DNA of 64,000 bases. Source: Sorangium aterium (GTDB lineage: Bacteria > Myxococcota_A > Polyangia > Polyangiales > Polyangiaceae). The stretch's first letter is position 1; every line of letters starts with the position of its first letter. Of the stretch, positions 26,854 through 43,942 are shown one piece after another. The notes beneath the pieces are model-generated. The model searched no databases. It was not told where the DNA came from and saw only the letters and a program-made list of their open reading frames with translations. The translations under genes and the position numbers were made by a program. The DNA is taken from positions 913,501-977,500 of the forward strand of contig NZ_JAQNDK010000006.1 in the NCBI RefSeq assembly GCF_028368935.1, in the 5' to 3' direction.

Positions 26854-27819
<966 letters not shown>

Positions 27820-28972: not shown

Positions 28973-31743
28973 AGCGCGCGTTCCTCGTCCCCGAGGTGCT
29001 GCAGGCGTCGCTCATGGACTGCGGCCCCGCCGCGCTCAAGGCGGTGCTGCAGGGGTTCGGCGTCGACGTGCACTACGAGTGGCTCCGCGACCGCTGCCAG
29101 ACGGACGTGGACGGGACCTCCATCGACGCGCTCGCCGCGCTCGGGCAGGAGCTCGGGCTCGCCACCGCCGAGGTGGTGGTCCCCCACGACAGCTTCCTCC
29201 TGCCAGAGGCCGACTGCTTGCCCGCGATCGTGGTCAAGCGCGGCGCGGGCGGCGCGCTCCACTTCGTGGTCGTCTGGCGCCGGCTCGGGCCGTTCGTGCA
29301 GATCCTCGACCCCGGGAGCGGGCGCCGCTGGGTGCGCTCAGCGCGCTTCATGGAGGACATGCCGCACTTCCCGATCCCGATCTCGATCGAGCGGTGGCGG
29401 CGGTGGGCGTCGTCCGCGGACTCGCTCGGCCCGCTCCGCGCGAAGCTGCGCGCGCTGCGCGCGGACGGGGAGGCGCTGATCGCCCGGGCCGACGCGGACC
29501 CGGGGTGGCGGCCGTTCGCGGCGCTCGACGCCGCCGTGCGGATGGTGGCGCGCCTCGTCCGGGGCGGCGCGATCGCGCGCGGGGGCGAGGCCCAGCGCGT
29601 GCTCCACGGCGTCTTCGAGCGCGCGCTCGCCGGGGAGGCGGGCGCCATCCCGAAGGGGTTCTTCTGGGCCACGGAGGGCAAGGCGCCGGGGAAGCTCCTC
29701 GTGCACGGCGCCGTCATCGTCCACGTCGGCCCGCGTCGGCGCGGCGCGGGCGAGGCCAGCAGCGAGGCCGCGCGCGCGCCTGCGTCCCCTACAGCGGCGC
29801 CGCCGCCGAGCTACCGCGGGAGCGCAGCGCCCGAGGCCGCGCGCGGGGTTGCGCCGGACCGGACTGCGCCGCGCGCGACCGCGACCGCGGCGCTGCCGGC
29901 GCCGGTTCGCCGGGAGCTCGAGCTGCCGACGCCATCCCCCTCGCGCCTGTTCTTCTGGATGCTGCGCGCCGACGCGGGCGGGGCGCTCGCGCTCGTCGGG
30001 GTGGCGCTCGCGGCGAGCGCGGCCATCGCGGCGATCGACGTGGTCGTCCTCCGCGGGCTGTTCGACGCGGTGAGGAGCGTCACCGTCGCGTACCAGCGCG
30101 CGCTCGGGCTCCTGGCCCTCGTCGCGTTCGCCGCCGGGGGCCTGGCGCTCGAGATCTTCGTGGCCCACGCCGTGTCGCGCCTCGGGCGCGCCCTCGAGGT
30201 GCGCTTCCGCGCCGCGTTCCTGGAGAAGCTGCCGCGGCTCGAGGATCGCTACCTGCGCAGCCGGCCGACCTCGGACATGACCGCGCGCGGCCACGCGATG
30301 CACCTGATGCGCGAGGCCCCGGCGCTCTTCGCCCGCATCGCGCGCGCGGCGCTGTCGTTCGCGGCGACGCTCCTCGGCGTCGTCTGGCTCTACCCGGGCG
30401 GCGCGTGGTTGTCGCTGGTGGCCGCGGCGGTCGCGCTCGCCGCCCCGTACCTCGCGCGGCGGCCGCTCGTGGAGAGCCTCATGCGCCTGCGCACGCACGC
30501 GGCGTCGCTCGAGCGGTTCTACCTCGACGCCCTGCTCGGCGTCGTGCCCATCCGCGTCCACGGCGCGGAGCGTGCGGTGCGGCGCGAGCACGAGGCGCTG
30601 CTCGTCGAGTGGGCGCGGACCGGCCGGCTCGTGCACGCGCAGTCCACCGCCATGCAGGCCGCCCAGGGGATCGCGAGCACGGCCGTGGCGGTCGCGATCG
30701 TCGGCGGCTACGTCGCCTCCGGCGGCCCGGCCGCGGCGCTGCTCCTGCTCGTGTTCTGGTCGCTGCGCCTCCCCGCGGCGGCGCAGGAGCTCGTCGCGGC
30801 GCTGCTCGGCTGGAAGAACGTGCGCAACGCCTCCGTGCGCCTCTTCGCGCCGCTCGCGGCGCCGGAGATGGACCTGCCCCGCGCGCCCGCCGAAGACGTT
30901 GTCGACGCAGCGCGCGCCGCGCAGGGCGCCGCGTGCGCCGCGTCGATCGACCTCCGGGGCGTCAGCGTGAAGGCCGGCGGGCACACGCTCCTGTCCGACG
31001 TCTCGCTGAGCGTCCCGGCGGGGGCGCACGTCGCGATCGTGGGGGCGTCGGGCGCGGGGAAGTCGTCGCTGCTCTCGCTGCTCCTCGGGTGGCTGCGGGC
31101 GTCCGGGGGGGAGGTCCTCGTCGACGGGCGCCCCTTCGACGACGCGGCGGTCGAGCGCCTCCGCCGCGCGACCGCGTGGGTGGACCCAGCGATCCAGCTC
31201 TGGAACCGCACGCTCCTCGAGAACATCACCTTCGGCCACGCCGGCGACGCCCTCGCGCGCGTGCCCCTGTCCATGAGCCAGGCCGAGCTCACAGGCGTCC
31301 TGGAGAGCCTGCCCGACGGCTTGCAGGCGGCGATCGGCGAGGGGGGCGCGCGCCTGTCGGGCGGGCAGGGGCAGCGCGTCCGCCTCGCGCGGGCGCTCAT
31401 GAAGGGCGACGCGCGCCTCGTGCTCCTCGACGAGCCGTTCCGCGGCCTCGAGCGCGAGCGGCGCCGGGAGCTGCTCGCGCGCGCGCGGGAGCACTGGGGG
31501 CGCTCGACGCTCGTCCTCGTCAGCCACGACGTCATGGACACGCTCGGCTTCGATCGCGTGCTGGTCGTCGAGGGGGGCAGGGTCGTCGAGGACGGCGCGC
31601 CGCGCGAGCTCATGGACGACCCGCGGAGCCGCTACCGCGCGCTCGCCGAGGCGGACGCGCGGGCGCGCGACGAGGTCTGGTCGAAGGAGCGCTTCAGGAG
31701 CGCGACGATGGAGGGCGGCCGGCTCATCCAGGGGGCGGCGTGA
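28969..31743 (+). CDS. C39-peptidase-containing ABC exporter (bacteriocin/RiPP type)
   Basis: A 924-aa protease-transporter. The N-terminal C39 domain has a complete triad: Cys18 in MDCGPAALKAVL, His98 in GALHFVVVW and Asp114 in ILDPGSG. Such domains cut leader peptides after double-glycine-like sites during export. Then follow a long Ala/Pro-rich spacer (about 245-310), six membrane segments, and an ATPase with Walker A GASGAGKSS (about 692), signature LSGGQGQR (about 796) and Walker B LVLLDEP (about 817). It overlaps neighbours by 4 nt at both ends. No classical double-glycine precursor gene is adjacent. Confidence 0.93.
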   Translation: MKRAFLVPEVLQASLMDCGPAALKAVLQGFGVDVHYEWLRDRCQTDVDGTSIDALAALGQELGLATAEVVVPHDSFLLPEADCLPAIVVKRGAGGALHFVVVWRRLGPFVQILDPGSGRRWVRSARFMEDMPHFPIPISIERWRRWASSADSLGPLRAKLRALRADGEALIARADADPGWRPFAALDAAVRMVARLVRGGAIARGGEAQRVLHGVFERALAGEAGAIPKGFFWATEGKAPGKLLVHGAVIVHVGPRRRGAGEASSEAARAPASPTAAPPPSYRGSAAPEAARGVAPDRTAPRATATAALPAPVRRELELPTPSPSRLFFWMLRADAGGALALVGVALAASAAIAAIDVVVLRGLFDAVRSVTVAYQRALGLLALVAFAAGGLALEIFVAHAVSRLGRALEVRFRAAFLEKLPRLEDRYLRSRPTSDMTARGHAMHLMREAPALFARIARAALSFAATLLGVVWLYPGGAWLSLVAAAVALAAPYLARRPLVESLMRLRTHAASLERFYLDALLGVVPIRVHGAERAVRREHEALLVEWARTGRLVHAQSTAMQAAQGIASTAVAVAIVGGYVASGGPAAALLLLVFWSLRLPAAAQELVAALLGWKNVRNASVRLFAPLAAPEMDLPRAPAEDVVDAARAAQGAACAASIDLRGVSVKAGGHTLLSDVSLSVPAGAHVAIVGASGAGKSSLLSLLLGWLRASGGEVLVDGRPFDDAAVERLRRATAWVDPAIQLWNRTLLENITFGHAGDALARVPLSMSQAELTGVLESLPDGLQAAIGEGGARLSGGQGQRVRLARALMKGDARLVLLDEPFRGLERERRRELLARAREHWGRSTLVLVSHDVMDTLGFDRVLVVEGGRVVEDGAPRELMDDPRSRYRALAEADARARDEVWSKERFRSATMEGGRLIQGAA

Positions 31744-33854
31744 AGGCGGGCGAGGCCGGACAGGCGGCAACGTTGGGCGGGCTCGTCTGGCAGCCGTCCG
31801 CGCTCGCCCACGCGATGAGCGCGCTCACGGCCGCGTGCGGGCTCGCGACCGGCGCGGTCCCGTCGCCCGGCGCGCCGCCGGAGGGCGACCCCACCGCGTG
31901 GATCGAGGCGTACGCGGGCTGCATGGGCGTCGAGGCGGAGGCGGTCCAGTGCAGCTTCGCCGAGCTCGGGGGCGCGCTCGCGTCCCTCGGCCCCTCGATC
32001 GTCCGCGTCGAGCAGGGCTACCTCGCGGTGATGTCCGCGGGACGGCGGGGGCTCTCGGTGCTGACGCCGGCGCTCACGCCGGCGCGGATCCCGCTGGAGA
32101 CCGTGCGCCGGGCGCTCACCGCCCACCTCGAGGACCGCCCCGCGTCGCACGTCGACAAGTGGCTCGCCGCGGCGCAGGTCCCGCCGCGGCGCGCCGCGCG
32201 GGCGCGCGACGAGCTGCTCGCCCAGCTCGTCGCGGATCGCCCCATCGACGGCGTGTGGCTGCTCCGCCCCGATCCTGGGTCGAGCTTCCGGCGCCTGCTC
32301 TCGAGGCGCGGGGTGCTCCGCCGGGGCGCGATCTTCCTCGCGGCCGCCGCGTCGCAGATCGCGCTCGGCGTCTTCGCCTGGTGGCTGATCGGCGCGGGCG
32401 CGCTCGAGGGCGACGTGCAGCCGGGGTGGCTGTTCGCGTGGGTGCTCCTGTCGCTCTCGGCGCTCTTCGTGCAGCTGTTCGCCTCGTTCACGGGGGGCAT
32501 GCTCACGATCGACGTCGCCGCGCTCCTCAAGCAGCGCCTGCTGTGCGGCGCGCTCCGCCTGGATCCTGCCGCGATCCGGGCGCGCGGCTCGGGCGAGCTG
32601 CTGGCCATGGTCTCCGAGTCCGAGGCGGTCGAGACGGCCGGGCTCGGCGGCGCGCTCGGGGCGATCGTCGCGCTCGTGCAGCTCGCGAGCGCCGCGGCGG
32701 TCCTCGCCGCCGGCGCCGGCGGCGGCCTCCACGTCGCGCTGCTCCTCGGGTGGACGCTCGCCGTGGCGCTGCTCGGGCGCCGCTTCGCCCGGGAGCGGGC
32801 GGCGTGGACGGGCGAGCGGTTCGCGATCACGAGCGGCTTCGTCGAGCACGTCGTCGGGCACCGGACGCGCGTCGCCCAGCAGGCCTCGCACCTCCACCAC
32901 CTGGAGGAGGACGCGGCGCTGGAGCGCTACCACCGCGCCGCGCGGGGGATGGATGGCGTGGGTGATCTCCTCGCGTCGCTCCCGGCGCGCGGGTGGCTCG
33001 CGCTCGGGCTGCTCGGCCTGGTCCCCGCGGTCCTGGGCGGGGTGGGCGCGGGCCCGCTCGTCGTCGCGACCGGCGGCATCCTCCAGGCGCAGGCCGCGTT
33101 CGCGACGCTGGCGACGAGCCTCGGCGCGCTCCTCTCCGCCGCCGTCTCGTGGCGCTCGATCGCCCGTCTCTTCACGGCGGCCGAGGGCCGCGAGCCCGCC
33201 GGGATCCCGCAGGCCGTGCTCGGGCGCCCCGCGACGTCGGACGTCGTGATCGAGGCGCGGGGCGTCTCGTTCCGCTACGACGGGGAGCGCGGCGAGCCGG
33301 TCCTCCGCGGCTGCGAGCTGGTGCTCTCGAAGGGCGACCGGCTGCTGCTCGAGGGGCGCTCCGGCGGCGGCAAGTCGACGCTCGCGGCCGTGCTCAGCGG
33401 CCTTCACGCGCCGTCGTCGGGGCTCGTGCTGCTGCGCGGCCTCGACCGGCGGACGCTGGGCGGGGCCGCGTGGCGCAGCCGCGTCGCGAGCGCGCCGCAG
33501 TTCCACGACAACCACGTGCTCTCCGGGACGCTCGCGTTCAACCTGCTGATGGGCCGCGCGTGGCCCGCGTCGCCCGAGGACCGGCGGGAGGCGGAGGTCG
33601 TCTGCCGCAAGCTGGGCCTCGGGCCGCTGCTGGACAGGATGCCCTCGGGGCTCGATCAGGTCGTGGGCGAGACGGGGTGGCAGCTCTCGCACGGCGAGCG
33701 GAGCCGGCTGTTCCTGGCGCGCGCGCTGCTCCAGCGCTCGGACGCCGTGATCCTCGACGAGAGCTTTGGCGCGCTGGATCCGCTGACGGCCCGCGAGTGC
33801 GTGGGCGCCGTGCTGGAGCGGGCGCCGGCGCTGATCGTCATTGCGCACCCGTGA
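31740..33854 (+). CDS. Second ABC transporter (fused membrane-ATPase) of the exporter operon
   Basis: A 704-aa half-transporter starting at GTG (31740, GTGA overlap). An N-terminal region of about 190 residues has no recognised motif and no intact peptidase triad; six membrane segments follow, then an ATPase with Walker A RSGGGKSTL (about 540), a variant signature LSHGERSR (about 650) and Walker B VILDES (about 670). The pairing of a C39-type ABC protein, a second ABC protein and HlyD resembles NHLM-type peptide export modules. It probably forms a heterodimer or works in series with the upstream exporter. Confidence 0.88.
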   Translation: MKAGEAGQAATLGGLVWQPSALAHAMSALTAACGLATGAVPSPGAPPEGDPTAWIEAYAGCMGVEAEAVQCSFAELGGALASLGPSIVRVEQGYLAVMSAGRRGLSVLTPALTPARIPLETVRRALTAHLEDRPASHVDKWLAAAQVPPRRAARARDELLAQLVADRPIDGVWLLRPDPGSSFRRLLSRRGVLRRGAIFLAAAASQIALGVFAWWLIGAGALEGDVQPGWLFAWVLLSLSALFVQLFASFTGGMLTIDVAALLKQRLLCGALRLDPAAIRARGSGELLAMVSESEAVETAGLGGALGAIVALVQLASAAAVLAAGAGGGLHVALLLGWTLAVALLGRRFARERAAWTGERFAITSGFVEHVVGHRTRVAQQASHLHHLEEDAALERYHRAARGMDGVGDLLASLPARGWLALGLLGLVPAVLGGVGAGPLVVATGGILQAQAAFATLATSLGALLSAAVSWRSIARLFTAAEGREPAGIPQAVLGRPATSDVVIEARGVSFRYDGERGEPVLRGCELVLSKGDRLLLEGRSGGGKSTLAAVLSGLHAPSSGLVLLRGLDRRTLGGAAWRSRVASAPQFHDNHVLSGTLAFNLLMGRAWPASPEDRREAEVVCRKLGLGPLLDRMPSGLDQVVGETGWQLSHGERSRLFLARALLQRSDAVILDESFGALDPLTARECVGAVLERAPALIVIAHP

Positions 33855-33972
33855 GCGTGAGGGAGCGGAGTACGGCCCCGACATGGGGGTGTCGTCGCCA
33901 GCGTGAGTGCTGCCGCGTCGCCCGCGGTGATCGGCGCGGGCCGTTCGCGGATCTCCCCTCGGTGGTCCCGGT

Positions 33973-35310
33973 TCAGGTGGACCCCACCGCCGTCCTCCGA
34001 CGACGACGGATCAAGGTCGAAAGTGCAATTGCCAGAGCAACCAGGGAAGTCCCGACAGACTCCCCCGAATCGGCCCTGCCGACCGCGCACGATCCAGAAT
34101 CAGCGCCACCGGCCGGGCCACCACCCGTGACGGCTCCACCCGTTCCACTGCTCCCGCCGCTTCCGACTGCGGTGCCGCTTCCGCCTGCGGTGGCACTTCC
34201 GCCTGCGGTGCCGCTTCCGCCTGCGGTGCCGCTCGACCCCGTGCTCCCAGCGGTCCCGCCGCTCATGCCGCCCTGCCCCTGTCCACCACCCGCACCATCT
34301 CCACCGGTTCCGCCTGCGCCGCCGCTTCCGCCCGCCCCACCGCTGCACTGCTCTATCTCGGGATCGACCGGCCCGGTCTTGTCGAGACCCAGAAAGGGGA
34401 TGACGTACTCAGCGGGGAACAACGCGTCGGATGGGCCGTGATCGCCGCCAATCGAGGTGAACGCGTCGAGGACCACGTAGCCGCACTCATTCTCCCAGCG
34501 CTGCCGCGTCGCATCGTGGTTGCCGAGACGAACTCCCGTATCGGTCGACGTCGGGCTCGCGCCCACGCCCAGAACGTTGGTCCATTGCTTGATGGCCTCC
34601 GTGTGGTTCGGGTACCTGATGAGGGTGTCCGCGTCGCCGTGGAAAAGCTGCAGCCGCGGGCGATGTCCCGCATACCCCGGGGCCAGCGTACGGGCGATGT
34701 CGCCCCATTCTTGCGCTGTGTGGGTCACCGAGCCGCCCGCGCACGCTCCGCTGTATCCGCCGTTGTTGCCTGATTCGTTGGCTGCGCGGCACCCGGCCGG
34801 CATGCCCGCCAACGCGGCGCCTGCTTTGAAGACGTCCGGGTAGAGGGCAAGCAGGAGCTCGGTCATCATGCCGCCGGACGAATCTCCCGTCGCATAGACG
34901 CGATCCGCGTTGCCTCCGTACGTGTCGAGCGCGTACTTCACCATCTGCCTGATGGCGTGACTGTCGCCACCGGCTTCGCGCGTGCGCGTCTTGTCCGACA
35001 CGACGTCCCAGCATCTTCCGCTGCTGGGGACGACCATGATGAAGCCATGGTCGTCCGCCGCGTCGACGATGCCCCCGCCCCGCGCCTGACCAAACACTGT
35101 ACTGGCGGTCCCGCCGCAGTAGTGCACCAGCGTCAGAATCGGAGGATTCGGCGCCACGTGGTCCGGGACATAGACGTACATGCTCACGTCACGAGGCAGA
35201 CCGCTCACCGCCCAGTCGTTGACCTGACGCAACGTCGCCGCTCCCGCGGAGGGTACCGACCCCAGCATGGCTGCCAGCAAGGCGCCCCAGGCAGTCCAAT
35301 TTCGGCTCAT
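33973..35310 (-). CDS. Secreted CE1-type esterase (feruloyl/acetyl-xylan esterase or PHB depolymerase-like) with C-terminal anchor
   Basis: A 445-aa alpha/beta hydrolase: signal peptide 1-24, LVHYCGGTAS oxyanion region, nucleophile Ser144 in TGDSSGGMM, and a late Asp/His region (LFHGDAD, SIGGDHGPSD). After about residue 325 comes a Gly/Ser/Thr-rich linker, partly made of an 18-nt repeat, then a hydrophobic helix (VGTSLVALAIALSTLI) and RRRRR, resembling myxobacterial C-terminal sorting signals. It should act on plant cell-wall esters at the cell surface. It is divergent from two GH43 genes with which it shares mirrored promoter-operators. Confidence 0.88.
   Translation of the reverse strand: MSRNWTAWGALLAAMLGSVPSAGAATLRQVNDWAVSGLPRDVSMYVYVPDHVAPNPPILTLVHYCGGTASTVFGQARGGGIVDAADDHGFIMVVPSSGRCWDVVSDKTRTREAGGDSHAIRQMVKYALDTYGGNADRVYATGDSSGGMMTELLLALYPDVFKAGAALAGMPAGCRAANESGNNGGYSGACAGGSVTHTAQEWGDIARTLAPGYAGHRPRLQLFHGDADTLIRYPNHTEAIKQWTNVLGVGASPTSTDTGVRLGNHDATRQRWENECGYVVLDAFTSIGGDHGPSDALFPAEYVIPFLGLDKTGPVDPEIEQCSGGAGGSGGAGGTGGDGAGGGQGQGGMSGGTAGSTGSSGTAGGSGTAGGSATAGGSGTAVGSGGSSGTGGAVTGGGPAGGADSGSCAVGRADSGESVGTSLVALAIALSTLIRRRRRTAVGST
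34157..34228 (-). repeat. 18-nt tandem repeat, four units, in the esterase linker
   Basis: Four 18-nt units (34157-34174, 34175-34192, 34193-34210, 34211-34228) differ by one or two bases and encode the GGSGTA/GGSATA linker. The unit is a multiple of three, so expansion or loss would only alter linker length. Confidence 0.85.
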
Positions 35311-35570
35311 GATGGAGTTCTCTCCTGTGTGTAAACTGGCTCTGTCGAACCAAGCAAGGCTGCGACGACATGACGCCGGCGATGTCGATGGCGAATCGCC
35401 ACGCTCAGCTCAGGTGACAGAAGGTTCTTTACGCGATCCGCCTTCCTCTTGCTGAGGATGGCGAAGCAGACCCTCCGGACGGAGGCGGCGCCGAGATCGA
35501 TCGGATGACGAAGGTCTCCGCGTTCACGACGACCCATCCATGGCGAAGCAAAAGGATACCGATCGGGTCG

Positions 35571-35603
35571 ATTGTGAACGCTCACATTGGCAACGTCAAT
35601 TCC
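35571..35603 (-). promoter_or_regulatory. Promoter with embedded lac-type operator, firing toward the esterase
   Basis: On the minus strand TTGACG (35599-35594) and CACAAT (35576-35571) are 17 bp apart, a plausible -35/-10 pair. The spacer and -10 contain TGTGAACGCTCACA (plus 35573-35586), one base from the ideal symmetric lac operator core TGTGAGCGCTCACA. A LacI/GalR-family repressor bound here should block the polymerase. Transcription would start near 35564, about 250 nt before the esterase ATG. Confidence 0.6.
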
Positions 35604-35752
35604 AATCGACCGGCCCGCGGTGTCGTCCAGCCGGAGGGGGGCGGGCGGGGCGCCTCTGGAGCGCGGCGTCACGAGAAGCGGTCCTCGGACCTGCGTCGAG
35701 GCGGATGGGCTCCAGGGGAACGGCGGCCGTGAGCTCGTCGTCGGGCCATTTC

Positions 35753-35783
35753 GGTTGACGTCGCCGATGTGAGCGCTCACAGT
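35753..35783 (+). promoter_or_regulatory. Mirror-image promoter with lac-type operator, firing toward the GH43 genes
   Basis: TTGACG (35755-35760), 17-bp spacer, CACAGT (35778-35783), with TGTGAGCGCTCACA at 35768-35781, identical to the ideal lac operator core. The 29 bases from 35781 back to 35753 match 24 of 29 bases of the other site in inverted orientation. Start of transcription would be near 35790, about 180 nt before the first GH43 ATG. No LacI-family gene is in the window. Confidence 0.65.
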
Positions 35784-35968
35784 CGCTCGAGAACCACCCT
35801 TTCGCTTTGTCCAGAACAGGCCGTCGTGCGCGCAGGGCGCCCGTCCTCGGGATCGATCCCGGCACGGCTCCGCTCGGTCATCGCGGACAAAGGTGCCCCA
35901 CGCACATCGGACCGGGTGGGCGTCGGCGCCCATCGGCGCAGCAACTACGCGCGAAACCGAGGAGCGAG

Positions 35969-37525
35969 ATGGCACGTTTGGGAAGCAGATCGAGAGCACG
36001 ATTCCTGGTGGCGCTCTTATGGACTTCCGGGTGCAGCGACCCGGTGACGACGACCGGCGGAGACGCAGGGCACGATGCCGAGCCCCCCGCGTGCTCCGAG
36101 GGCACCTGGGATCACGATGGCGACAGCGCGACGAGCTGCGTCGCATGGACAGGCTGCTCCGCAGGCACCTTCGCGAGCGCCGAGGGCTCGCCTACGGCGG
36201 ACCGGCGGTGCACGGCGTGCCCGGAGGACACCTTCAGCGACACGATGAACGCGCCGAGCTGCAGGATGCACACGCCCTGCGCGCCTGGGACGAGGCAGAG
36301 CGCGCCTGGGACGAGCACCACGCCCGCGCAGTGTGACGGCTGCTCGCCGGGCACGTACTGCGCAGGCGGGACCGCCGCGCCTGTCGATTGCGCGGACGGC
36401 ACCTGGGACGACGACGCCGATCCCACGACGACATGCGTCGCGTGGACCGACTGCGTGCCAGGGGAGCTCGTCGGCACGGAGGGGAGCAGCACCACGGACC
36501 GCAGCTGCCTCAAGTGTACGAACGGCGAGCACACGGCCACGATGAATGCAACCAGCTGCTCCCCGGGTGCCTGGGTGATGAGCTACTTCGGGCCGAATCA
36601 GGACGTGGCGAGCGATTCGCTGCATCTCGCCTACAGCACCGACGGGCTTCACTGGTCGGCCCTCGCCAATGGACAACCGACGTACCAGCTCACCGGGATG
36701 GGCACGAATCACATCCGAGATCCGTTCCTGTTCCGCAAGAACGATGGAACGTATGTCTATATCGCCACGGACTGGACGCTCTCGGAAAACGACTCGAACT
36801 ACTGGAACCATCCGAGCTCCAAGATCTTCGTGGCCGACTCGACCGATCTCATCACCTTCACGAATCCCCGGTTGATCACGCTCACGAACCTCTCGGGCCC
36901 CAGCGCCACCCCGATGCACGCCTGGGCCCCGGAGGCTTACTACGATCCCGATCGCAAGCTCTATGCGATCATCTGGTCGGGGAACGACACCACGGGCGCG
37001 AACCGCATCTACGTCAGCTACACCGAGGACTTCGTCACCATCGTCAACCCGACGCCCGACGTGCTCTTCGACCCGGGCTACAGCGTCATCGACGCGACGA
37101 TCACGCAATGGAATGACCGCAACTACCTCTTCTTCAAGGACGAGACGGACAGCAGCGGGAGCGCGCTCACCGGATCGGGCAAGGACATCCAGATCGCGCG
37201 CTCCTCGACGCTCGCGCTCGATCCGGCGACGTTCACGCGATGGAGTCCGGACTACATCACGCGCGGGTCGACCCAGAGCAGGAGACGAGCGACCGAGGGA
37301 CCGTTCGTCATCAAGGATCCGCGGGAGAGTCGATGGTACCTCTTCGCCGACTACTACCTGAACGGCGGTGTGTTCGGGTGCTGGAGCACGACGGATCTCG
37401 ACACGGATCCGGGCTCTTGGACGGAGCTCCCGAGCGCGCAGTACCGCTTTCCGTCCGGCGTGCGCCACGCGAACGCGGTCCGGGTCACGCAGGCGGAGCT
37501 CGACGCGATCATCGCCCACTACTGA
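35969..37525 (+). CDS. GH43 glycosidase lipoprotein with Cys-rich N-terminal repeats
   Basis: A 518-aa secreted enzyme. The signal peptide ends in a lipobox (LWTSGC). About residues 30-195 form Cys-rich repeats (GTWDHDGDSATSCVAWTGC and copies) common in myxobacterial surface proteins. The rest is a five-bladed GH43 propeller with the likely triad Asp251 (HIRDPFLF), Asp375 (VIDATITQW) and Glu443 (ATEGPFVIK). It probably releases arabinose or xylose from hemicellulose. ATG 35969 has GGAG 4 nt upstream; the next GH43 gene follows after 41 bp, so they form an operon. Confidence 0.88.
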   Translation: MARLGSRSRARFLVALLWTSGCSDPVTTTGGDAGHDAEPPACSEGTWDHDGDSATSCVAWTGCSAGTFASAEGSPTADRRCTACPEDTFSDTMNAPSCRMHTPCAPGTRQSAPGTSTTPAQCDGCSPGTYCAGGTAAPVDCADGTWDDDADPTTTCVAWTDCVPGELVGTEGSSTTDRSCLKCTNGEHTATMNATSCSPGAWVMSYFGPNQDVASDSLHLAYSTDGLHWSALANGQPTYQLTGMGTNHIRDPFLFRKNDGTYVYIATDWTLSENDSNYWNHPSSKIFVADSTDLITFTNPRLITLTNLSGPSATPMHAWAPEAYYDPDRKLYAIIWSGNDTTGANRIYVSYTEDFVTIVNPTPDVLFDPGYSVIDATITQWNDRNYLFFKDETDSSGSALTGSGKDIQIARSSTLALDPATFTRWSPDYITRGSTQSRRRATEGPFVIKDPRESRWYLFADYYLNGGVFGCWSTTDLDTDPGSWTELPSAQYRFPSGVRHANAVRVTQAELDAIIAHY

Positions 37526-37566
37526 ACATCCTAGCGGACCCACTGATGGGTAGAGGTTCCCTCATC

Positions 37567-39876
37567 ATGCGCGCACCGAGTTCTTCCCATCCAGAGCGCA
37601 CTTCCCTCTCTGCGCCACGCGTTGCGCTCACGGCGGCAGCTGGCGCCTTCGCCGCGCTGCTCGTGGCGGTCGGGTGCTCGGATGGGCCCTCGACCGATGC
37701 GCCGGACGCGTCGACCAATTCATTGCGGATCATGCCGGCGGTCACGGCGCTCAGCACCTCGGAGTCCGGCGGGCGGGTGACCGTGAGCGTGGCGCTCGAC
37801 CGCGCGCCGAGCGGGCCTGTCATGGTGCCGGTCTCGAGCTCGGATGCGACCGAAGGCTCCGTCTCACCGGCGACCATCTCCTTCACGGTGGAGGATTGGA
37901 GCGTCCCTCGAGAGATCACGGTCACGGGCGTGGACGACGCGGACAGCGACGGGGATCAGATCTTCCGCGTCCGCTTCGGGCCTTCGGTCTCTGCAGACCC
38001 AGCCTGCGACGGCCTCGTCGCGGAGTCCGCTGACATCACGAACACGGACGACGACGGTCCAGGGACGGCAGCGATCGTCGTCAGCGACCCGTCGGGGACC
38101 CTCGCCGAGCGCGGCGCTCCCGTGACGTTCACCGTGCTCCTCGCGTCGCAGCCGAGCGCGCCCGTGACGATCGCCCTCAGCGTCAGCGACGCGACCGAGG
38201 CGACGCTGAGCCATGCGGACCTGACGTTCACGGAGGCGAACTGGAACACGGCGCAGACCGTTACCTTGAGCAGCGTCGATGACTGGCAGGCCGACGGAGC
38301 TCAGCCCGTACGTGTCGTCTTCGGCTCACCGGCCAGCGAGGACCCCGAGTATGCGGCCCTCGCCGCCCCCGCTGTTCTCGAGCTATCCAATCTCGACGAC
38401 GACGTCGGAGGGGGGTACCAGATTCGCACGACGCACAAGGAGGACGCGCCGCTCTACGTCGCGCACTCCTATTATCACGCGATGATCACCAACCTCGACG
38501 ATAGGGCAAACAACCAGCTTCCTGCCGACTTCCAGTGGAGAGTGGTGCCCGGCCTGGCGAACCCGGATGATCCGACGCTGGTGTCGTTCGAGCCTGTGGG
38601 TTTCGGCGGTCGCTACCTGCACGTCGACAGGATGAATTCGACCCGGTACCCGCTGCAGAGCGAGACGGCCAACCGGGCTAGCGGGCTCTGGCAGACTCCA
38701 CCCGAAGAGAGGAGTCACCTTCTGTGGATCGACGTGTTCACGGATACCACCACGTTCCGGAGCGACGCCACGTTCCGGATCGTGCCCGCGCTGAACGGGG
38801 ATCCGACGATGGTCTCGCTGCAGTGGTACTCAGATCCGACACGTTATCTCCGGCGCCTGAACTACCAGATCTATGCGCACGTGCTCGACGGCACGGCGGT
38901 CAAGAACTCGGAGGCGTCGTTCGCGCTCGAGCCGCTCGGCTATTTGATCTCGCAGCGCGCCGATCCCCACATCAAGCGGCACACGGACGGGTACTACTAC
39001 TTCACCGCGAGCGTGCCGACGTACGATCGCATCGAGATCGGGCGCGCGACCACGATACGAGGCCTGGCCAGCGCGACCCCGAAGGTCGTCTGGACGAAGC
39101 ACGCGACCGGCCCGATGGCGGCGCACATCTGGGCGCCCGAGCTACATTTCATCGACGGCAAGTGGTACATCTATTTCGCCGCCGGAAGCTCGACCAACAT
39201 CTGGGCCATTCGCATGTATGTGCTCGAGAACTCATCGGCCAACCCGATGGATGGCACGTGGATCGAGCGAGGGCAGATCGTGACGGACTCGGACACGTTC
39301 GCGCTCGACGCGACGACGTTCGAGCACGACGGCAAGCGCTATCTCGTGTGGGCGCAGGAGGACCCCAGCGTCGAGGGCGACAACAGCAGCTTGTTCATCG
39401 CGGCCATGATGAACCCGTGGACGCTGGCCAGGCCCAACGTGCGGATCGCCAGACCCGAGCACGCCTGGGAGACGGCGGGGTTCGCGGTCAACGAAGGTGC
39501 TGCCGTGCTCGAGCGGAATGGGCGGATCTTCATCAGCTACTCAGCGAGCGCGACGGACGATCGCTACTGCCTCGGCCTGCTCACGGCGAGCGCGACGGAC
39601 GACCTGCTGAGCGCCAGCTCATGGACGAAGAACGAGAATCCAGTGTTCGTCAGCGCAAACGGGCTGTATGGCCCGGGCCACAACTCGTTCACGACCTCGG
39701 CGGATGGATCGATCGACGTGCTCGTGTACCACGCGCGGAACTACGAGAAGATCACGGGGGACCCGCTCTACGACCCGAACCGTCACACGCGCGTCCAGCG
39801 GCTCGAGTGGAATGCAGACGGAACGCCGAACTTCGGCGTACCGCTCCTGAACGGCGCGAATACGATTGGCGACTGA
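37567..39876 (+). CDS. GH43 glycosidase with AbfB (CBM42) domain, lipoprotein
   Basis: A 769-aa enzyme. The signal peptide ends LLVAVGC. Two beta-sandwich repeats (about 45-285, with VTVSVALDRAPSGPV and VTFTVLLASQPSAPV) precede an arabinose-binding AbfB beta-trefoil (about 290-455, WRVVPGLANP...VSFEPVGFGGRYLHV). The C-terminal GH43 domain starts RADPHIKR (Asp466) and includes HIWAPELHFIDGKWYIYF. Domain make-up points to an arabinan/arabinoxylan-degrading enzyme. ATG 37567 is preferred (AGAGG 10 nt upstream, right before the signal peptide); 37546 is possible. Confidence 0.88.
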   Translation: MRAPSSSHPERTSLSAPRVALTAAAGAFAALLVAVGCSDGPSTDAPDASTNSLRIMPAVTALSTSESGGRVTVSVALDRAPSGPVMVPVSSSDATEGSVSPATISFTVEDWSVPREITVTGVDDADSDGDQIFRVRFGPSVSADPACDGLVAESADITNTDDDGPGTAAIVVSDPSGTLAERGAPVTFTVLLASQPSAPVTIALSVSDATEATLSHADLTFTEANWNTAQTVTLSSVDDWQADGAQPVRVVFGSPASEDPEYAALAAPAVLELSNLDDDVGGGYQIRTTHKEDAPLYVAHSYYHAMITNLDDRANNQLPADFQWRVVPGLANPDDPTLVSFEPVGFGGRYLHVDRMNSTRYPLQSETANRASGLWQTPPEERSHLLWIDVFTDTTTFRSDATFRIVPALNGDPTMVSLQWYSDPTRYLRRLNYQIYAHVLDGTAVKNSEASFALEPLGYLISQRADPHIKRHTDGYYYFTASVPTYDRIEIGRATTIRGLASATPKVVWTKHATGPMAAHIWAPELHFIDGKWYIYFAAGSSTNIWAIRMYVLENSSANPMDGTWIERGQIVTDSDTFALDATTFEHDGKRYLVWAQEDPSVEGDNSSLFIAAMMNPWTLARPNVRIARPEHAWETAGFAVNEGAAVLERNGRIFISYSASATDDRYCLGLLTASATDDLLSASSWTKNENPVFVSANGLYGPGHNSFTTSADGSIDVLVYHARNYEKITGDPLYDPNRHTRVQRLEWNADGTPNFGVPLLNGANTIGD

Positions 39877-40468
39877 CTGTTTCGCGGAGGAATCGAGCGC
39901 GAGCAGCGAGGTGGGGGGCTCGGCACGAGGCTCTCCCAAAATCCCGGAGAATCCGACGGATTGTGACGGTTCGTCCCCGCGGAACAGTGCCGCCAGACGC
40001 ACCGGTCGATGACGAGCGATCGCCGGAAGCAGCGGGCTCTGCGATGAATCGGCGGGAGAGGGGGACCCGCCTGGGAGTGATGAAAGGTCGGGCGGACGAC
40101 AACGGCAAATGAGGACCGCTTCCCGGACGCGCCGCCCCTTGTCATGGCCCTGGGGGGGACCGTCGTGTTACCATGCCCATGGAATGAGCGTGTGCCTGCA
40201 CCCCGTCGCGTCGCGTTCGTGGCCTTGCCGCGGCGCGCGTAGCGCGCTCATCCCCCTGCGATCCCGGCTCCTCTGCCGGAGGTCGCCCGCACGCTCGTAG
40301 GGGAGCGGCCTCCCGGCGTTTTTCGCTGGCCGCTCCCGGAAGGAAGCGGGCCTGGCATCGAGGGCGCCCGAGCGGGCGACCTGGGCGAGCACTCACGCCG
40401 TCCAGCTCGCCGGCGCGGACCTTCGGCCGAGCCCGGATCGCACCGACGACACAAGGAGATCTCAGCTC
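39877..40468. other. Intergenic region with an inverted repeat
   Basis: About 590 bp with no convincing gene on either strand. GGGAGCGGCC (40301-40310) and GGCCGCTCCC (40328-40337) are perfect 10-bp arms around a 17-nt loop, about 130 bp upstream of rnk. It may be a terminator on either strand or a leader structure. Confidence 0.45.
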
Positions 40469-40891
40469 ATGGCACCTCACTCGAACCCGATCGTCCTCAC
40501 CGAATTTGACCGCGATCGCCTCGCGCGCCTGCTCGAGGCGCTGCGCGCGCGGCCCGGGGGCGACTCCCCGAACCTGGAGGCGCTCGAGATCGAGATCGAG
40601 CGCGCCGACGTCGTGAAGCCAGCGGATATCCCGCCGAACGTGGTCACCATGAACTCCAGGGTCGAGCTCCTCGATCTCGACACAGAGGAGCGGCTCTGCG
40701 TGACCGTGGTGTTTCCCGGGATCGCCGACGTGAAGAGCGGCCGCATCTCGGTGCTCGCGCCGATGGGGCTCGCGCTGCTCGGCTGTCGAGAGGCCGACGA
40801 GGTGGAGTGGCCCACGCCGAGCCGCACCCGGCGGCTCCGGATCGAGCGCATCGTCTATCAGCCCGAGGCGTCGGGTCGCTTCGATCTGTGA
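40469..40891 (+). CDS. rnk: Rnk-type nucleoside diphosphate kinase regulator (GreA C-terminal fold)
   Basis: A 140-aa protein. Residues about 50-130 show the FKBP-like GreA/Rnk C-terminal domain: NVVTMNSRVELLDLDTEE, VTVVFPGIADVKSGRISVLAPMGLALLGCREADEVEW. The N-terminal helical part is short, as in Rnk rather than GreA, so it probably binds RNA polymerase or alters nucleotide pools rather than rescuing backtracked complexes. ATG 40469 has AAGGAGAT 9 nt upstream. It converges on the Cys-rich peptide gene, with a strong hairpin between them. Confidence 0.88.
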   Translation: MAPHSNPIVLTEFDRDRLARLLEALRARPGGDSPNLEALEIEIERADVVKPADIPPNVVTMNSRVELLDLDTEERLCVTVVFPGIADVKSGRISVLAPMGLALLGCREADEVEWPTPSRTRRLRIERIVYQPEASGRFDL

Positions 40892-40945
40892 GCCTTCGGC
40901 GCGAACGGCCGGCCTCGCCGGCGCGTCGTGCGCCTTGAACGCGAA

Positions 40946-40977
40946 AGGCCCGACGCTGCTCATCGCAGCGCGGGCCT
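40946..40977 (-). terminator. Strong terminator hairpin between rnk and the Cys-rich peptide gene
   Basis: AGGCCCG (40946-40952) plus CGCTGC (40954-40959) pair with GCAGCG (40965-40970) plus CGGGCCT (40971-40977): a 13-bp stem with one bulged base and a 5-nt loop. On the minus strand it is followed by TTTCG, so it best fits the end of the peptide transcript, about 70 bp after the peptide stop. It could also serve rnk. Confidence 0.65.
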
Positions 40978-41047
40978 CCGCGGTCGTGTCGTCAGGTTCG
41001 AGGAGCCGGTCGCCGCGGGCCGCGGTCCCCCGCGCCTCGAGGTCGGC

Positions 41048-41203
41048 TCAGCAGCCGCAACAGCCGGGCGGGCAGGTGCAAACCTGCGGGGCAAGGCCCG
41101 CCTGGAGCTCCGTGGGGACCTCCACCGTCAGGCGCGCAGGGCGCTCCTCGACGGTCTCCTGCTTCGACTCGACCTCGACCTCGACCTTGATCTGCTCGTT
41201 CAT
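41048..41203 (-). CDS. 51-residue Cys-rich peptide, candidate modified-peptide precursor
   Basis: ATG at 41203 with GGAG 8 nt upstream. The first 40 residues are acidic and Cys-free (starting MNEQIKVEVEVESKQ), like a leader; the last ten residues, CTCPPGCCGC, hold five cysteines (42, 44, 48, 49, 51). A double-glycine-like AG at 35-36, with Leu at -12 and -4, resembles a C39 protease site, though the Glu of the consensus is one place off. It has its own promoter (41285-41270) and terminator (40977-40946) and is divergent from genes for a thiol-dioxygenase-like enzyme and two WHQF proteins. I recognise no family. It may be a RiPP precursor or a small metal-binding peptide. Confidence 0.75.
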   Translation of the reverse strand: MNEQIKVEVEVESKQETVEERPARLTVEVPTELQAGLAPQVCTCPPGCCGC

Positions 41204-41269
41204 GGCGATTGCTCCGTAGTGGGTTGGTTATTTCCATCCGGGGACTCGACGTCCCGCGAGGAGGGCTAT

Positions 41270-41285
41270 TGCAGTCGCCGTGCCA
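41270..41285 (-). promoter_or_regulatory. Sigma-54 promoter of the Cys-rich peptide gene
   Basis: Read on the minus strand, TGGCACGGCGACTGCA matches the consensus TGGCACG-N4-TTGCW at all defined positions but one (C for the first T of the -12 element). Transcription would start near 41259, giving a 56-nt leader before the ATG at 41203 and a monocistronic RNA of about 310 nt ending at the 40946-40977 hairpin. Confidence 0.7.
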
Positions 41286-41417
41286 CGCCGTTTTGCCGCG
41301 ATATCGGCCGCTTTGGCGCGGTATCGCCCGCGCTTGAGCAACCCCTTTCCCAGTTGGGGAAATCGGTCTGGCATCGCCGTTCCCTTCCAACCAGCTCCGG
41401 TACACGCGGTGGGGTCC

Positions 41418-41546
41418 CCGAGCGGCGCTCGCCCGCACAGGAGACGGGCTCAGATCGGCGTTTTCGGCGCGCAGGCGCACTCCGGTGCGCCGAGCACCGA
41501 AAACGTCGAGATGGGCCCGTCTCCGAAGCGGGCGAGCGCCGCTCGG
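41418..41546. repeat. 129-nt imperfect inverted repeat upstream of the biosynthetic operon
   Basis: Perfect paired blocks: 41418-41436 with 41528-41546 (19 bp), 41440-41449 with 41515-41524 (10 bp), 41459-41467 with 41497-41505 (9 bp), and an inner hairpin 41474-41480 with 41485-41491 around TCCG. Blocks are separated by short mismatched stretches. The structure ends 27 bp before the first gene of the operon. It could be an RNA regulatory structure, an operator array or a decayed palindromic repeat element. On the plus strand, 41544-41559 (CGGCACGGAGCTCGCA) resembles a sigma-54 site but would start transcription only 4 nt before the ATG. Confidence 0.8.
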
Positions 41547-41573
41547 CACGGAGCTCGCAACGAGCCCGGGGTG

Positions 41574-42227
41574 ATGGACACGTCAATCATCCCCGAACTG
41601 CTCTCCTTCCGTGCGCCGTGGCTCGAAGAGAAGCTCGTCAAGGACCGGGTGGTCCCTTCCTGCGAGGAGGCGGCGCGGCTCCTCGACGAGGTAAAGAAAT
41701 ACCTCTTCCTCTGCGAGGCGAACCGGACCCGGCAAGTCCCCATGTTCTCCCGGAGGATCGACGAGGTCTGGCACCAGTTCGTCCTCTTCACCGAGGAGTA
41801 TGCGGCCTTCGGGCACCGCTTCTTCGGCGAGTTCGTCCACCACACCGCCAACACGGCTCCTCGCGGCCCCGGATCGCGCCCCGAGATGACCCGCGCCGAG
41901 TTTCGCGCCGACTACGAGGCGCTCTTCGGGCCCGTCTCCGCGGCGTGGAGCGACGAGCTCGCCGTGACGCCCGACACGCGGCTCATCCGCGTCACGTTCG
42001 GCCGGCCCATCTTCGTTCGGGTAGAGGAGGGGAAGGCAGATCTCGTGTGGTCGCTGGAGCCGCCGCGCGTGCTCCTGCGCATCGACGCGTGGGCGAAGGA
42101 CGCGCTGCAGTTCATCGTCGACTGCGATCACTTCTATGTCCGCGAGCTCCCCGGCCTCGAGGACGGCGAGCGCGTGGCGCTCTGCCGTCCGCTCGTGAAG
42201 GGCGACTTCCTCCGGGTCGCGCCATGA
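41574..42227 (+). CDS. WHQF-motif protein 1 of the Cys-peptide locus
   Basis: A 217-aa protein without signal peptide. Residues about 57-92 (PMFSRRIDEVWHQFVLFTEE then RFFGEFVHH) carry conserved His residues (67, 89, 90) like the motif of bacterial proteins annotated as glycine-rich-domain-containing; the biochemical role of these is unknown. Residues about 145-217 form a second domain (VRVEEGKADLV, VLLRIDAWAKDAL, FYVRELPGL, RVALCRPLV) that recurs in both following genes. Start chosen by alignment with the paralogue at 43241. Its stop overlaps the next start as ATGA. Confidence 0.85.
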   Translation: MDTSIIPELLSFRAPWLEEKLVKDRVVPSCEEAARLLDEVKKYLFLCEANRTRQVPMFSRRIDEVWHQFVLFTEEYAAFGHRFFGEFVHHTANTAPRGPGSRPEMTRAEFRADYEALFGPVSAAWSDELAVTPDTRLIRVTFGRPIFVRVEEGKADLVWSLEPPRVLLRIDAWAKDALQFIVDCDHFYVRELPGLEDGERVALCRPLVKGDFLRVAP

Positions 42228-43237
42228 GGCTCGCCGAGCTCACCGCCCTCTTCGGGCGGCTCGATTTCCCGGGCCCAGAAGACCGCGGCCATCCGGCGCG
42301 CGATGATGTGCGCGCGGTCGAGGGCGCGGTCCGCGACGGGCTCTCGGACGACGAGCTCCTGCTCGACCTCTTCGCGCTCGAGATCGAGCGTCGCGACGGC
42401 GCGCCGGATCTCGCGCCGTTCCACGTCATCCCCGAGCTCGGCGTGCGCCTCGCGTTCGCGTACTGGCGGCCCGGGCGCGCGGCCGGCGCCCACGAGCACT
42501 CGGACTGGACGGTCACGGCGGTCGTCCACAACACGCTCGACGTCGCGACCTTCGACTGGGACGCGACGGCCCGCGCGCGGCGGCTCGTGCCGAAGCGGCT
42601 GTTCTCCGCGGAGGCCGGGCGGGTCGGCCACATCTACGGGCCGTGCATCCACGATCCGCGGAACCCGACGGGGAGCTGGTCCATCTCGCTGCACCTGTTC
42701 GGCCCTCACGACGGCCCGGTCATCGAGGCGCAGGTGGGCCCCATCGACGGCCTGACCCCCGCGGCGCCCTGGGCGGCGCCGGACGACGCGCTCTCGGCGG
42801 CGCTCCTCGCGCACGAGCGGGAGTGCGTGCGCCGGGCGCAGATCGACGCCCTCGAGCGGCGGGGCCCGCAGGCCGCCCCGCTCCTCGCGCGCCTCCACGC
42901 CCGCGGCGACGCGGGGACCCGGCGGCGCGCCGCCCGGGCGCTCGGCCGGACCGAGGCCCTCGGCGCGCACGCCGTCCTCTCGCGCCGCTGGCCGGGCGTG
43001 GAGCTCGACGTGGCGCCCCGCGCGGGCCGCGCCGAGCTCGTCGCCCACTCCGGCGGGCGCGTCCAGGTCCTTCTCCGCGTCGACGCGTGGGCCGGGCCCG
43101 CCCTCCGCGCGGTGTCGGCCGCCCGGGAGCTCCGCCCCAGCGACCTCCCCGGCCTCGCGGAGGCGGAGCAGCTCGCGCTCGCCCGCGCCCTCGTCGACTG
43201 GGGGACCTTTCAGCCCTTCGAAGCCCAGGAGAACTGA
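42224..43237 (+). CDS. Cysteine-dioxygenase-like cupin protein of the Cys-peptide locus
   Basis: A 337-aa protein. Residues about 65-170 follow the thiol dioxygenase cupin: GAHEHSDW gives His90 and His92, LDVATFDWD matches the strand after it, CIHDPRN gives the third iron ligand His143, and SISLHLFGPHD matches the SLHLYSPP segment of cysteine dioxygenase. The Cys-Tyr crosslink residues of the animal enzyme are replaced (Val and Phe). A helical part (about 190-255) leads to the same C-terminal domain as its neighbours (LLRVDAWAGPAL, DLPGL). It might oxidise cysteine thiols of the nearby peptide to sulfinates, or free thiols (inference). Confidence 0.85.
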   Translation: MRLAELTALFGRLDFPGPEDRGHPARDDVRAVEGAVRDGLSDDELLLDLFALEIERRDGAPDLAPFHVIPELGVRLAFAYWRPGRAAGAHEHSDWTVTAVVHNTLDVATFDWDATARARRLVPKRLFSAEAGRVGHIYGPCIHDPRNPTGSWSISLHLFGPHDGPVIEAQVGPIDGLTPAAPWAAPDDALSAALLAHERECVRRAQIDALERRGPQAAPLLARLHARGDAGTRRRAARALGRTEALGAHAVLSRRWPGVELDVAPRAGRAELVAHSGGRVQVLLRVDAWAGPALRAVSAARELRPSDLPGLAEAEQLALARALVDWGTFQPFEAQEN

Positions 43238-43240
43238 GCC

Positions 43241-43942
43241 ATGCAATCCACGCAAACCACGCAGCCCATGCAGCCCACGCAATCCACGCAGACAGACGTC
43301 GTGACGCCGAGCGCGCACAGGCGGCCTGATCTCCTTGCCTACCGGGCGCCGTTCGTCATCAGCAAGCTGCTCATGAACAAGACCGTGACCACCGAGCGCG
43401 AGGCAGAGGCGCTGTTCCGGGAGCTCGTGCGCTATCTCTGGCTCGTCGACTCCGACCGCTCCCGGGCTTACCCGATGTTCTCGCTGCGCGTCGACGAGGC
43501 CTGGCACCAGTTTGCTCTCTTTACAATCGAATATGCCGACTTCTGCCGGCGCTTCTTCGGGCGCTTCCTGCACCACGCGCCGAGCAATGCGCCCGTCACG
43601 CACGCCTGCCGCGAGGCGACGTGGGACGAGTTCGCGGACGCGTACAGCGCCCTGTACGGCGAGCCGCCGCCCGAGCTGTGGAGCGACGCTTCGTCCGTCT
43701 GTGGCCCGCGCCGCGTGATCCGCGATCGCGAGGTGTCGGTCCGGCTGAGCGACGGCAAGGCGGAGCTCGTCGACGGCGACGCGGTGCTCGTGCGCGTCGA
43801 CGCATGGGGCGAGGCCGCGCTGCGCTTCATCGCCCGGCACGGCATCTTCTATGTGCGCGAGCTGCCCGGGCTCGACCTGGACGACCGGATCGCGCTCTGC
43901 CGGGCGCTCGTGGCGTCGCGGACGCTGCGCGTCGCTCCGTAG
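43241..43942 (+). CDS. WHQF-motif protein 2 of the Cys-peptide locus (paralogue of protein 1)
   Basis: A 233-aa paralogue of the 41574 gene product: PMFSLRVDEAWHQFALFTIE then RFFGRFLHHAP in the middle (about 78-113) and the shared C-terminal domain (VSVRLSDGKAELV, VLVRVDAWGEAAL, FYVRELPGL, RIALCRALV) at about 164-230. The first 20 residues are a low-complexity Gln/Thr tail from a short DNA repeat (MQSTQTTQPMQPTQSTQTD). AGGAG lies 9 nt before the ATG, and only 3 bp separate it from the dioxygenase-like gene. The pair probably arose by duplication around it. Confidence 0.85.
   Translation: MQSTQTTQPMQPTQSTQTDVVTPSAHRRPDLLAYRAPFVISKLLMNKTVTTEREAEALFRELVRYLWLVDSDRSRAYPMFSLRVDEAWHQFALFTIEYADFCRRFFGRFLHHAPSNAPVTHACREATWDEFADAYSALYGEPPPELWSDASSVCGPRRVIRDREVSVRLSDGKAELVDGDAVLVRVDAWGEAALRFIARHGIFYVRELPGLDLDDRIALCRALVASRTLRVAP

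What the first reader, a model, noticed from the sequence alone, without database searches (positions are those of the whole stretch)
41048..43942. Undescribed Cys-rich peptide system: five-Cys peptide opposite a thiol-dioxygenase-like enzyme and two WHQF proteins
A 51-codon gene encodes a Cys-free acidic leader and a CTCPPGCCGC end. Facing it is a compact operon of two paralogous WHQF/HH-motif proteins around a cupin with all three cysteine-dioxygenase iron ligands (His90, His92, His143). Cysteine dioxygenases and plant cysteine oxidases convert thiols to sulfinates. A Cys-rich peptide beside such an enzyme suggests peptidyl-Cys oxidation, a modification not established for RiPPs as far as I know. 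Alternatives are a metal-storage peptide or a thiol-metabolism locus with an unrelated small gene.
Basis: partly seen in the sequence, partly recalled or inferred. Interest (0 to 1): 0.92.

Follow-up and report, generated by a model that had tools for sequence, protein, structure and literature searches.

The report
New cysteine-rich modified-peptide gene system
A myxobacterium carries a small cysteine-rich peptide gene next to three proteins that probably recognise the peptide's leader and oxidise its cysteines before export; matching gene sets occur in other myxobacteria and in actinobacteria, so this looks like an undescribed family of modified peptides and not a chance neighbour.

Summary
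In detail: a 51-codon five-Cys peptide gene (41048-41203, -) is divergent from WHQF-A, a cupin and WHQF-B (41574-43942, +). Conserved leader plus variable Cys core is the anatomy of a RiPP precursor. The cupin's predicted fold matches only thiol dioxygenases in its top 50 structural hits, keeps His90/His92/His143 and lacks the Arg and Cys-Tyr features of free-cysteine enzymes. WHQF proteins, cupin and, in one locus, a 2OG-Fe oxygenase share a C-terminal winged-helix domain like ribosomal-oxygenase tails and RiPP recognition elements. A C39-peptidase export operon, 7 kb away here, abuts the system in three relatives. Best reading: a new RiPP family, with WHQF as the constant maturation partner and the cupin an accessory peptidyl-Cys dioxygenase. 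RiPP anatomy is well supported; the chemistry (sulfinate) is inferred and untested.

The parts
41048..41203 (-). Precursor peptide: leader MNEQ..RLTVEVPTELQAG, core LAPQVCTCPPGCCGC (five Cys)
   Evidence: homologues; RBS GGAG; Leu at -12, Leu at -4 and AG at -2/-1 fit C39 cleavage after AG
41574..42227 (+). WHQF-A: helical domain with E39, D63-E64-x-W66-H67, H89-H90, plus C-terminal winged-helix/RRE-like domain (res 130-217)
   Evidence: the frame is open upstream to 41280, start chosen by homology
42224..43237 (+). Cupin: thiol-dioxygenase-fold domain (res 1-183; His90, His92, His143), helical linker (189-239), same C-terminal winged-helix/RRE-like domain (252-331)
43241..43942 (+). WHQF-B, paralogue of WHQF-A (48% identical)
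26854..27819 (+). Sigma-54-dependent activator, first gene of the export operon
   Evidence: homologue next to the system in L074
27821..28972 (+). HlyD-type membrane fusion protein
   Evidence: homologues in L072, L074
28969..31743 (+). ABC exporter with N-terminal C39 (bacteriocin-processing) peptidase
   Evidence: PF03412 E 1e-17, PF00005; homologues adjacent in L005, L072, L074
31740..33854 (+). Second ABC exporter subunit
   Evidence: PF00005; homologues adjacent in L005, L072, L074
33855..40937 (.). About 7 kb present here but replaced by 165 bp in Sorangium So0157-2 (esterase-like gene, TNFR-like repeat protein, GH43, Rnk/GreA): separates exporter and peptide gene, not thought part of the system

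Best explanation
A ribosomally made, post-translationally modified peptide (RiPP) system. The 51-aa precursor is recognised through its leader motif (RLTVEVP) by the winged-helix/RRE-like C-terminal domain that WHQF-A, WHQF-B and the cupin all carry. The cupin, a peptidyl version of the thiol dioxygenases, uses iron held by three His and O2 to oxygenate one or more core Cys thiols (sulfinate the most likely product). The WHQF helical domain is the constant maturation partner; its E39/E64-x-x-H67/H90 set suggests a second metal site acting on, or protecting, the other Cys. The modified peptide is cleaved after AG by the C39 peptidase of the linked ABC exporter and secreted. Shown: gene set, conserved leader with variable Cys core, co-occurrence, folds by prediction, ligand conservation, linked exporter. 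Inferred: leader binding, metal content, chemistry, export. Step by step: RiPP-type precursor and enzymes 0.9; leader binding by the shared domain 0.75; cupin acts on peptidyl Cys sulfur 0.6; product is a Cys sulfinate 0.4; C39 processing in the myxobacterial members 0.75.
For: Precursor-like ORFs at 15 of 18 loci; 15 motif+Cys ORFs inside operon regions (69 kb) and none in 224 kb of flank. A profile of the short precursor run over 106 Polyangiaceae genomes gives strong hits (E<1e-7) in 7 genomes, all WHQF-positive, none in WHQF-negative ones (Fisher p 1e-8); one of them (G1067) is a blind hit 436 nt from the WHQF gene (the other six are in the profile). Leader conserved, core hypervariable, also among the four precursors of one locus (L072). 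C-terminal domain shared by WHQF and cupin (hhalign 98.3%, E 1.5e-14) and by a 2OG-Fe(II) oxygenase in L072; structural match to MINA53 Z 11.2 and to RREs of PbtF, ThcOx, TbiB1 and McbBCD at Z 5.3-5.9; published work reports RRE-like domains on JmjC proteins whose bacterial relatives lie in RiPP-like contexts (PMC12710340). Cupin: all top 50 VIA rows are thiol dioxygenases, Z 10.4-14.3; 7 of 8 PDB profile hits likewise; His triad 10/10; no Arg60 or Cys93 equivalent and no conserved Tyr at 159, as expected if the substrate has no free carboxylate (ADO: PMC8503633). Exporter with C39 peptidase adjacent in L005, L072, L074.
Against: No expression, mass or solved-structure data. The cupin is missing genome-wide from eight WHQF-positive genomes, so S-oxygenation by the cupin is not the common reaction. 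The C-terminal domain fits ribosomal-oxygenase winged helices better than RREs, and its middle helix is a single turn. Three loci (L055, L076, L077) show no precursor; L077 is a more distant WHQ type. ADO and PCO, the known protein-acting thiol dioxygenases, act on N-terminal Cys and have Asp in place of the Ser-His pair kept here. The leader end lacks the usual E-8/L-7 of double-glycine leaders, and L056 has AV at the site. Actinobacterial loci show no linked exporter of this kind within the stretches read.
Confidence: 0.6

Rival explanations
1. A RiPP system in which the cupin does something other than sulfinylation on the peptide (a sulfur cross-link, sulfoxide/sulfenate, or carbon oxidation), with WHQF doing the main chemistry.
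For: Cupin absent from six loci that have a precursor, so WHQF alone can serve; three different protein types (WHQF, cupin, 2OG-Fe oxygenase) carry the same domain; Ser155-His157 kept but Tyr lost, so the active site is not that of any characterised thiol dioxygenase.
Against: The closest folds are without exception enzymes that dioxygenate thiols.
Confidence: 0.25
2. A metal-handling system: the Cys-rich peptide is a secreted or stored metal ligand, WHQF proteins load or sense metal, and Cys oxidation tunes or releases it.
For: CxC and CC clusters suit soft metals; the WHQ His/Glu set looks like a metal site; exporter linked.
Against: Cores vary widely in length and Cys number (two in L075 to nine in L072), which fits poorly with one metal site; no metal-responsive gene seen next to it.
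Confidence: 0.12
3. A thiol-metabolism locus with an unrelated small ORF.
For: The fold class includes free-cysteine and mercaptopropionate dioxygenases.
Against: Cys-bearing ORFs with the same leader motif sit beside the homologues in two phyla, including a blind hit; the substrate-carboxylate Arg is not conserved.
Confidence: 0.03

Closest known systems
Thiol dioxygenases (CDO, 3MDO, ADO/PCO)
   Same: Cupin fold, three-His iron site, Ser155-His157 pair as in 3MDO (PMC10966181 abstract)
   Different: Fused to a helical linker and a winged-helix/RRE-like domain; no Arg60, Cys93 or Tyr157 equivalents; encoded beside WHQF proteins and usually a Cys-rich precursor
RiPP pathways with JmjC/cupin oxygenases (biphenomycin-type PbsQ/BpmG; JmjC-RRE proteins of PMC12710340)
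   Same: Iron oxygenase in a RiPP cluster; RRE-like domain fused to an oxygenase
   Different: There a cupin/JmjC-like enzyme hydroxylates Orn, with MNIO and B12-rSAM partners; here a thiol-dioxygenase fold and WHQF proteins, no MNIO or rSAM noticed in the loci read
NHLM/C39-exported bacteriocins
   Same: HlyD protein, C39-peptidase ABC exporter plus second ABC subunit; double-glycine-like leader end
   Different: Scores far below the NHLM equivalog cut-offs (178 of 853 bits); leaders match no Pfam or NCBIfam leader family
Ribosomal oxygenases MINA53/NO66/YcfD
   Same: C-terminal winged-helix domain (Z 6.8-11.2)
   Different: Catalytic domain is JmjC and 2OG-dependent, substrate a ribosomal protein

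Membership tests
RiPP system | Genetically encoded precursor with conserved leader and variable core beside maturation genes | tested here: met
RiPP system | Post-translational modification of the core | not testable with these tools
   Needs mass spectrometry
Thiol dioxygenase superfamily | CDO-type cupin fold | tested here: met
   All top 50 VIA rows, Z 10.4-14.3 over res 1-183; model pLDDT 89.9
Thiol dioxygenase superfamily | Three-His iron site | tested here: met
   H90, H92, H143 in 10/10, H90/H92 and H143 aligned with the 3MDO/CDO ligands; iron itself not tested
Cysteine dioxygenase (free cysteine) | Substrate-carboxylate Arg60 and Cys93-Tyr157 pair | tested here: not met
   V/I at 97 and F/I/S/V/T/L at 159; the Arg position is read from a low-identity alignment
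ADO/PCO (N-terminal Cys of proteins) | Asp in place of the SHY His, hydrophobic residues for Ser and Tyr | tested here: not met
   Ser155 (Thr in one) and His157 kept; definition from PMC8503633
RRE | Order of elements beta-beta-beta then alpha-alpha-alpha | tested here: inconclusive
   AF2: three to four strands, helix, one-turn helix, helix; RRE rows Z 5.3-5.9, ribosomal-oxygenase rows 6.8-11.2
RRE | Binds the precursor leader | not testable with these tools
   No complex prediction available; needs a binding assay
C39 double-glycine leader | L-12, I/L-4, G/A-2 G-1 before the core, with a C39-peptidase exporter | tested here: met
   9 of 10 short myxobacterial precursors have GG or AG at the site; PF03412; E-8/L-7 absent; cleavage untested
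NHLM bacteriocin export | TIGR03796/03797/03794 above cut-off | tested here: not met
   178/853, 93/709, 50/156 bits
GRDP-like (PF07173) | Profile match of the WHQ domain | tested here: inconclusive
   No Pfam match; own-genome PF07173 search rang nowhere, controls included

The most novel reading that the evidence does not exclude
A new RiPP class, spread over two phyla, in which an RRE-fused three-His thiol dioxygenase oxygenates internal peptidyl cysteines, and the WHQF domain is a new metalloenzyme fold acting on Cys-rich cores, with the same recognition domain carried by at least three oxidative or maturation protein types.
Probability: 0.4. Interest if true: 0.92.

Novelty: new variant of a known kind. 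Interest (0 to 1): 0.8.

Why it matters
Enzymatic oxygenation of internal cysteines in a ribosomal peptide by a thiol dioxygenase was not found in the literature searched. The precursors are small enough for immediate co-expression tests, the WHQ domain has no Pfam family, and the shared C-terminal domain gives a handle for mining related oxidative RiPP pathways that current profile libraries miss.

Tried and rejected
Pfam, NCBIfam and PADLOC scans of the three proteins and the precursors gave nothing beyond a weak HEAT_2 hit. Chance ORF: rejected. PF07173 link of the WHQ domain: could not be tested. 'Cupin always present': rejected by genome-wide search. The long-leader precursor domain as a free-standing family: 1 of 106 Polyangiaceae genomes, only with WHQF. 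Plasmid search for other cupins or long leaders: only two Streptomyces plasmids. Literature searches for a thiol dioxygenase in a RiPP pathway found none, but most subscription journals are not held.

Full report
Observation. The peptide is divergent from the operon, with a GGAG ribosome site. It is the only ORF tail in the window with at least four Cys in its last 12 residues; Markov sequences give 0.1 per window.

Is the peptide part of the system? I collected WHQF homologues from genome contigs and whole genomes. They are rare: 11 of 108 Polyangiaceae genomes, 4 of 395 Actinomycetes genomes. Beside them lie ORFs with a shared motif [RV]L-x-[VIM] followed by a short Cys-rich end: So0157-2 RLTVEVPTELQAGVGPAVCTCPPGCCC; a Myxococcales MAG RLTVEVPTQITAGLPKNCVHCFCSKTYCCS; Mycobacterium GRLRILLRSSAEGYSYCGGTCGACCCYEKEVSE; Streptomyces GRLRIMARDSTMAADCRSLCFVDPPCHSTCRVCQSRGCM; Pseudonocardia GRLVIQRRGPQPLANSCSLICTSNCELCGSFCNCATFCFTVPQ; four in G1057. 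With a fixed rule, 15 such ORFs fall in the operon regions (69 kb) and none in 224 kb of flank. Two more, with fewer Cys, came from reading (L054) and from a profile search (G1067). Counting distinct loci with readable flanks, 15 of 18 have a precursor; L055, L076 and L077 do not. The L009 and L029 Streptomyces loci carry nearly the same precursor and are counted once in the 18.

Independent co-occurrence. The short-precursor profile gives strong hits in 7 of 106 Polyangiaceae genomes, all WHQF-positive (p 1e-8). Six of the seven supplied profile or near-identical sequences, so only G1067 is a blind success; it lies 436 nt from its WHQF gene, divergent, as in the window.

Two leader types. Myxobacterial precursors are mostly short (50-80 aa). 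Others, in mycobacteria, Streptomyces, Pseudonocardia and one Polyangiaceae MAG, have about 175 aa with a conserved N-terminal domain (GYVG..LYPSL..LS..I..DILH.E..PES..PFG...WVR.DA) before the same GRLxI motif and Cys core. No library names it.

The proteins. WHQF: helical domain plus C-terminal domain, model pLDDT 90.7. In an alignment of 25 WHQ proteins, D63, W66, H67, H90 and W125 are invariant, E39 is kept in 24 and E64 in 23; I infer a metal site. The C-terminal domain matches the winged helix of MINA53/NO66/YcfD (Z 6.8-11.2) and then RREs (Z 5.3-5.9). The cupin carries the same domain, as does a 2OG-Fe(II) oxygenase in L072. Bregman et al. report RRE-like domains on JmjC proteins with bacterial relatives in RiPP-like contexts (PMC12710340). 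The cupin domain has a thiol-dioxygenase fold: all 50 top rows, Z 10.4-14.3. The His triad is invariant; Ser155-His157 are kept; Tyr, Cys93 and Arg60 equivalents are not. ADO likewise lacks the carboxylate Arg, which its authors link to substrates without a free carboxylate (PMC8503633).

What is constant and what is accessory. A genome-wide cupin search shows only WHQF C-terminal-domain hits, or nothing, in G381, G382, G383, G647, G734, G1034, G1060 and G1067; six of these have precursors. So WHQF is the core and the cupin an add-on, found in the window, L005, L009/L029, L010, L011, L012, L053, L056, L072 and L073. The two mycobacterial loci L006 and L008 have a methyltransferase-like gene after WHQF.

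Export. The window has a sigma-54 activator, HlyD protein, C39-peptidase ABC exporter and second ABC subunit at 26.9-33.9 kb. In So0157-2 the stretch matching 30226-33854 is followed after 165 bp by the stretch matching 40938-41290 that holds the peptide gene, so about 7 kb separates them only in the window lineage (or was lost in the other). The same exporter genes lie beside the system in L072 and L074. In the short leaders, Leu falls at -12, Ile/Leu at -4 and GG/AG at -2/-1 in 9 of 10, as in C39 leaders (the consensus is from my own knowledge), though E-8/L-7 are absent.

Mechanism and confidence. I take it as a RiPP system (0.9), with leader recognition by the shared domain (0.75), sulfur oxygenation of peptidyl Cys by the cupin (0.6) to a sulfinate (0.4), and C39 cleavage and export in the myxobacterial members (0.75). 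What the mature product does (antibiotic, signal, metal ligand) is open; the exporter and hypervariable core lean to an exported antagonistic or signalling peptide.

Novelty. A RiPP in the broad sense, so a known kind; but leader, WHQ domain and RRE-fused thiol dioxygenase match no profile or paper found here. The paper library lacks most subscription journals, so absence there is weak evidence.

Noticed in passing
NC_018997.1 (pHUSEC41-3), L032 4339-7540; L028: A 7.9-kb mobilizable E. coli plasmid family carries a WHQ-domain protein with a Cys/Gly tail (SVCGCSGKGCGAGCSCNSR), an ABC transporter and a JmjC_2 ribosomal-oxygenase-like protein; 30 of 5426 complete E. coli genomes hold most of the cassette. 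It looks like a parallel system with the Cys-rich part fused to the WHQ domain.
   Followed up: partly
window 41418-41546: A 53-nt inverted repeat (85% complementary, 23-nt loop) lies between the peptide and WHQF-A; it is absent from So0157-2 and has no second copy in the loci held.
   Followed up: partly
L072 9294-10276 (+): 2OG-Fe(II) oxygenase fused to the same C-terminal domain, in a locus with four precursor peptides and an S9/DLH-type hydrolase (7316-8260) shared with L073.
   Followed up: partly
L014 5662-6438: Gammaproteobacterial WHQ protein with a Cys/Gly-rich tail, another fused form.
   Followed up: no
window 33855-40937: About 7 kb between exporter and peptide gene (GH43 arabinofuranosidase-type protein, TNFR-like Cys repeats, PHB-esterase-like gene, Rnk) absent from the same site in So0157-2.
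   Followed up: partly
L053 4868-5417: The long-leader frame and the GRLRM-Cys core lie in two overlapping frames; either two genes or a frameshift.
   Followed up: no
L005 5535-5727: The So0157-2 cupin has an insertion of about 60 residues between the thiol-dioxygenase and helical parts.
   Followed up: no
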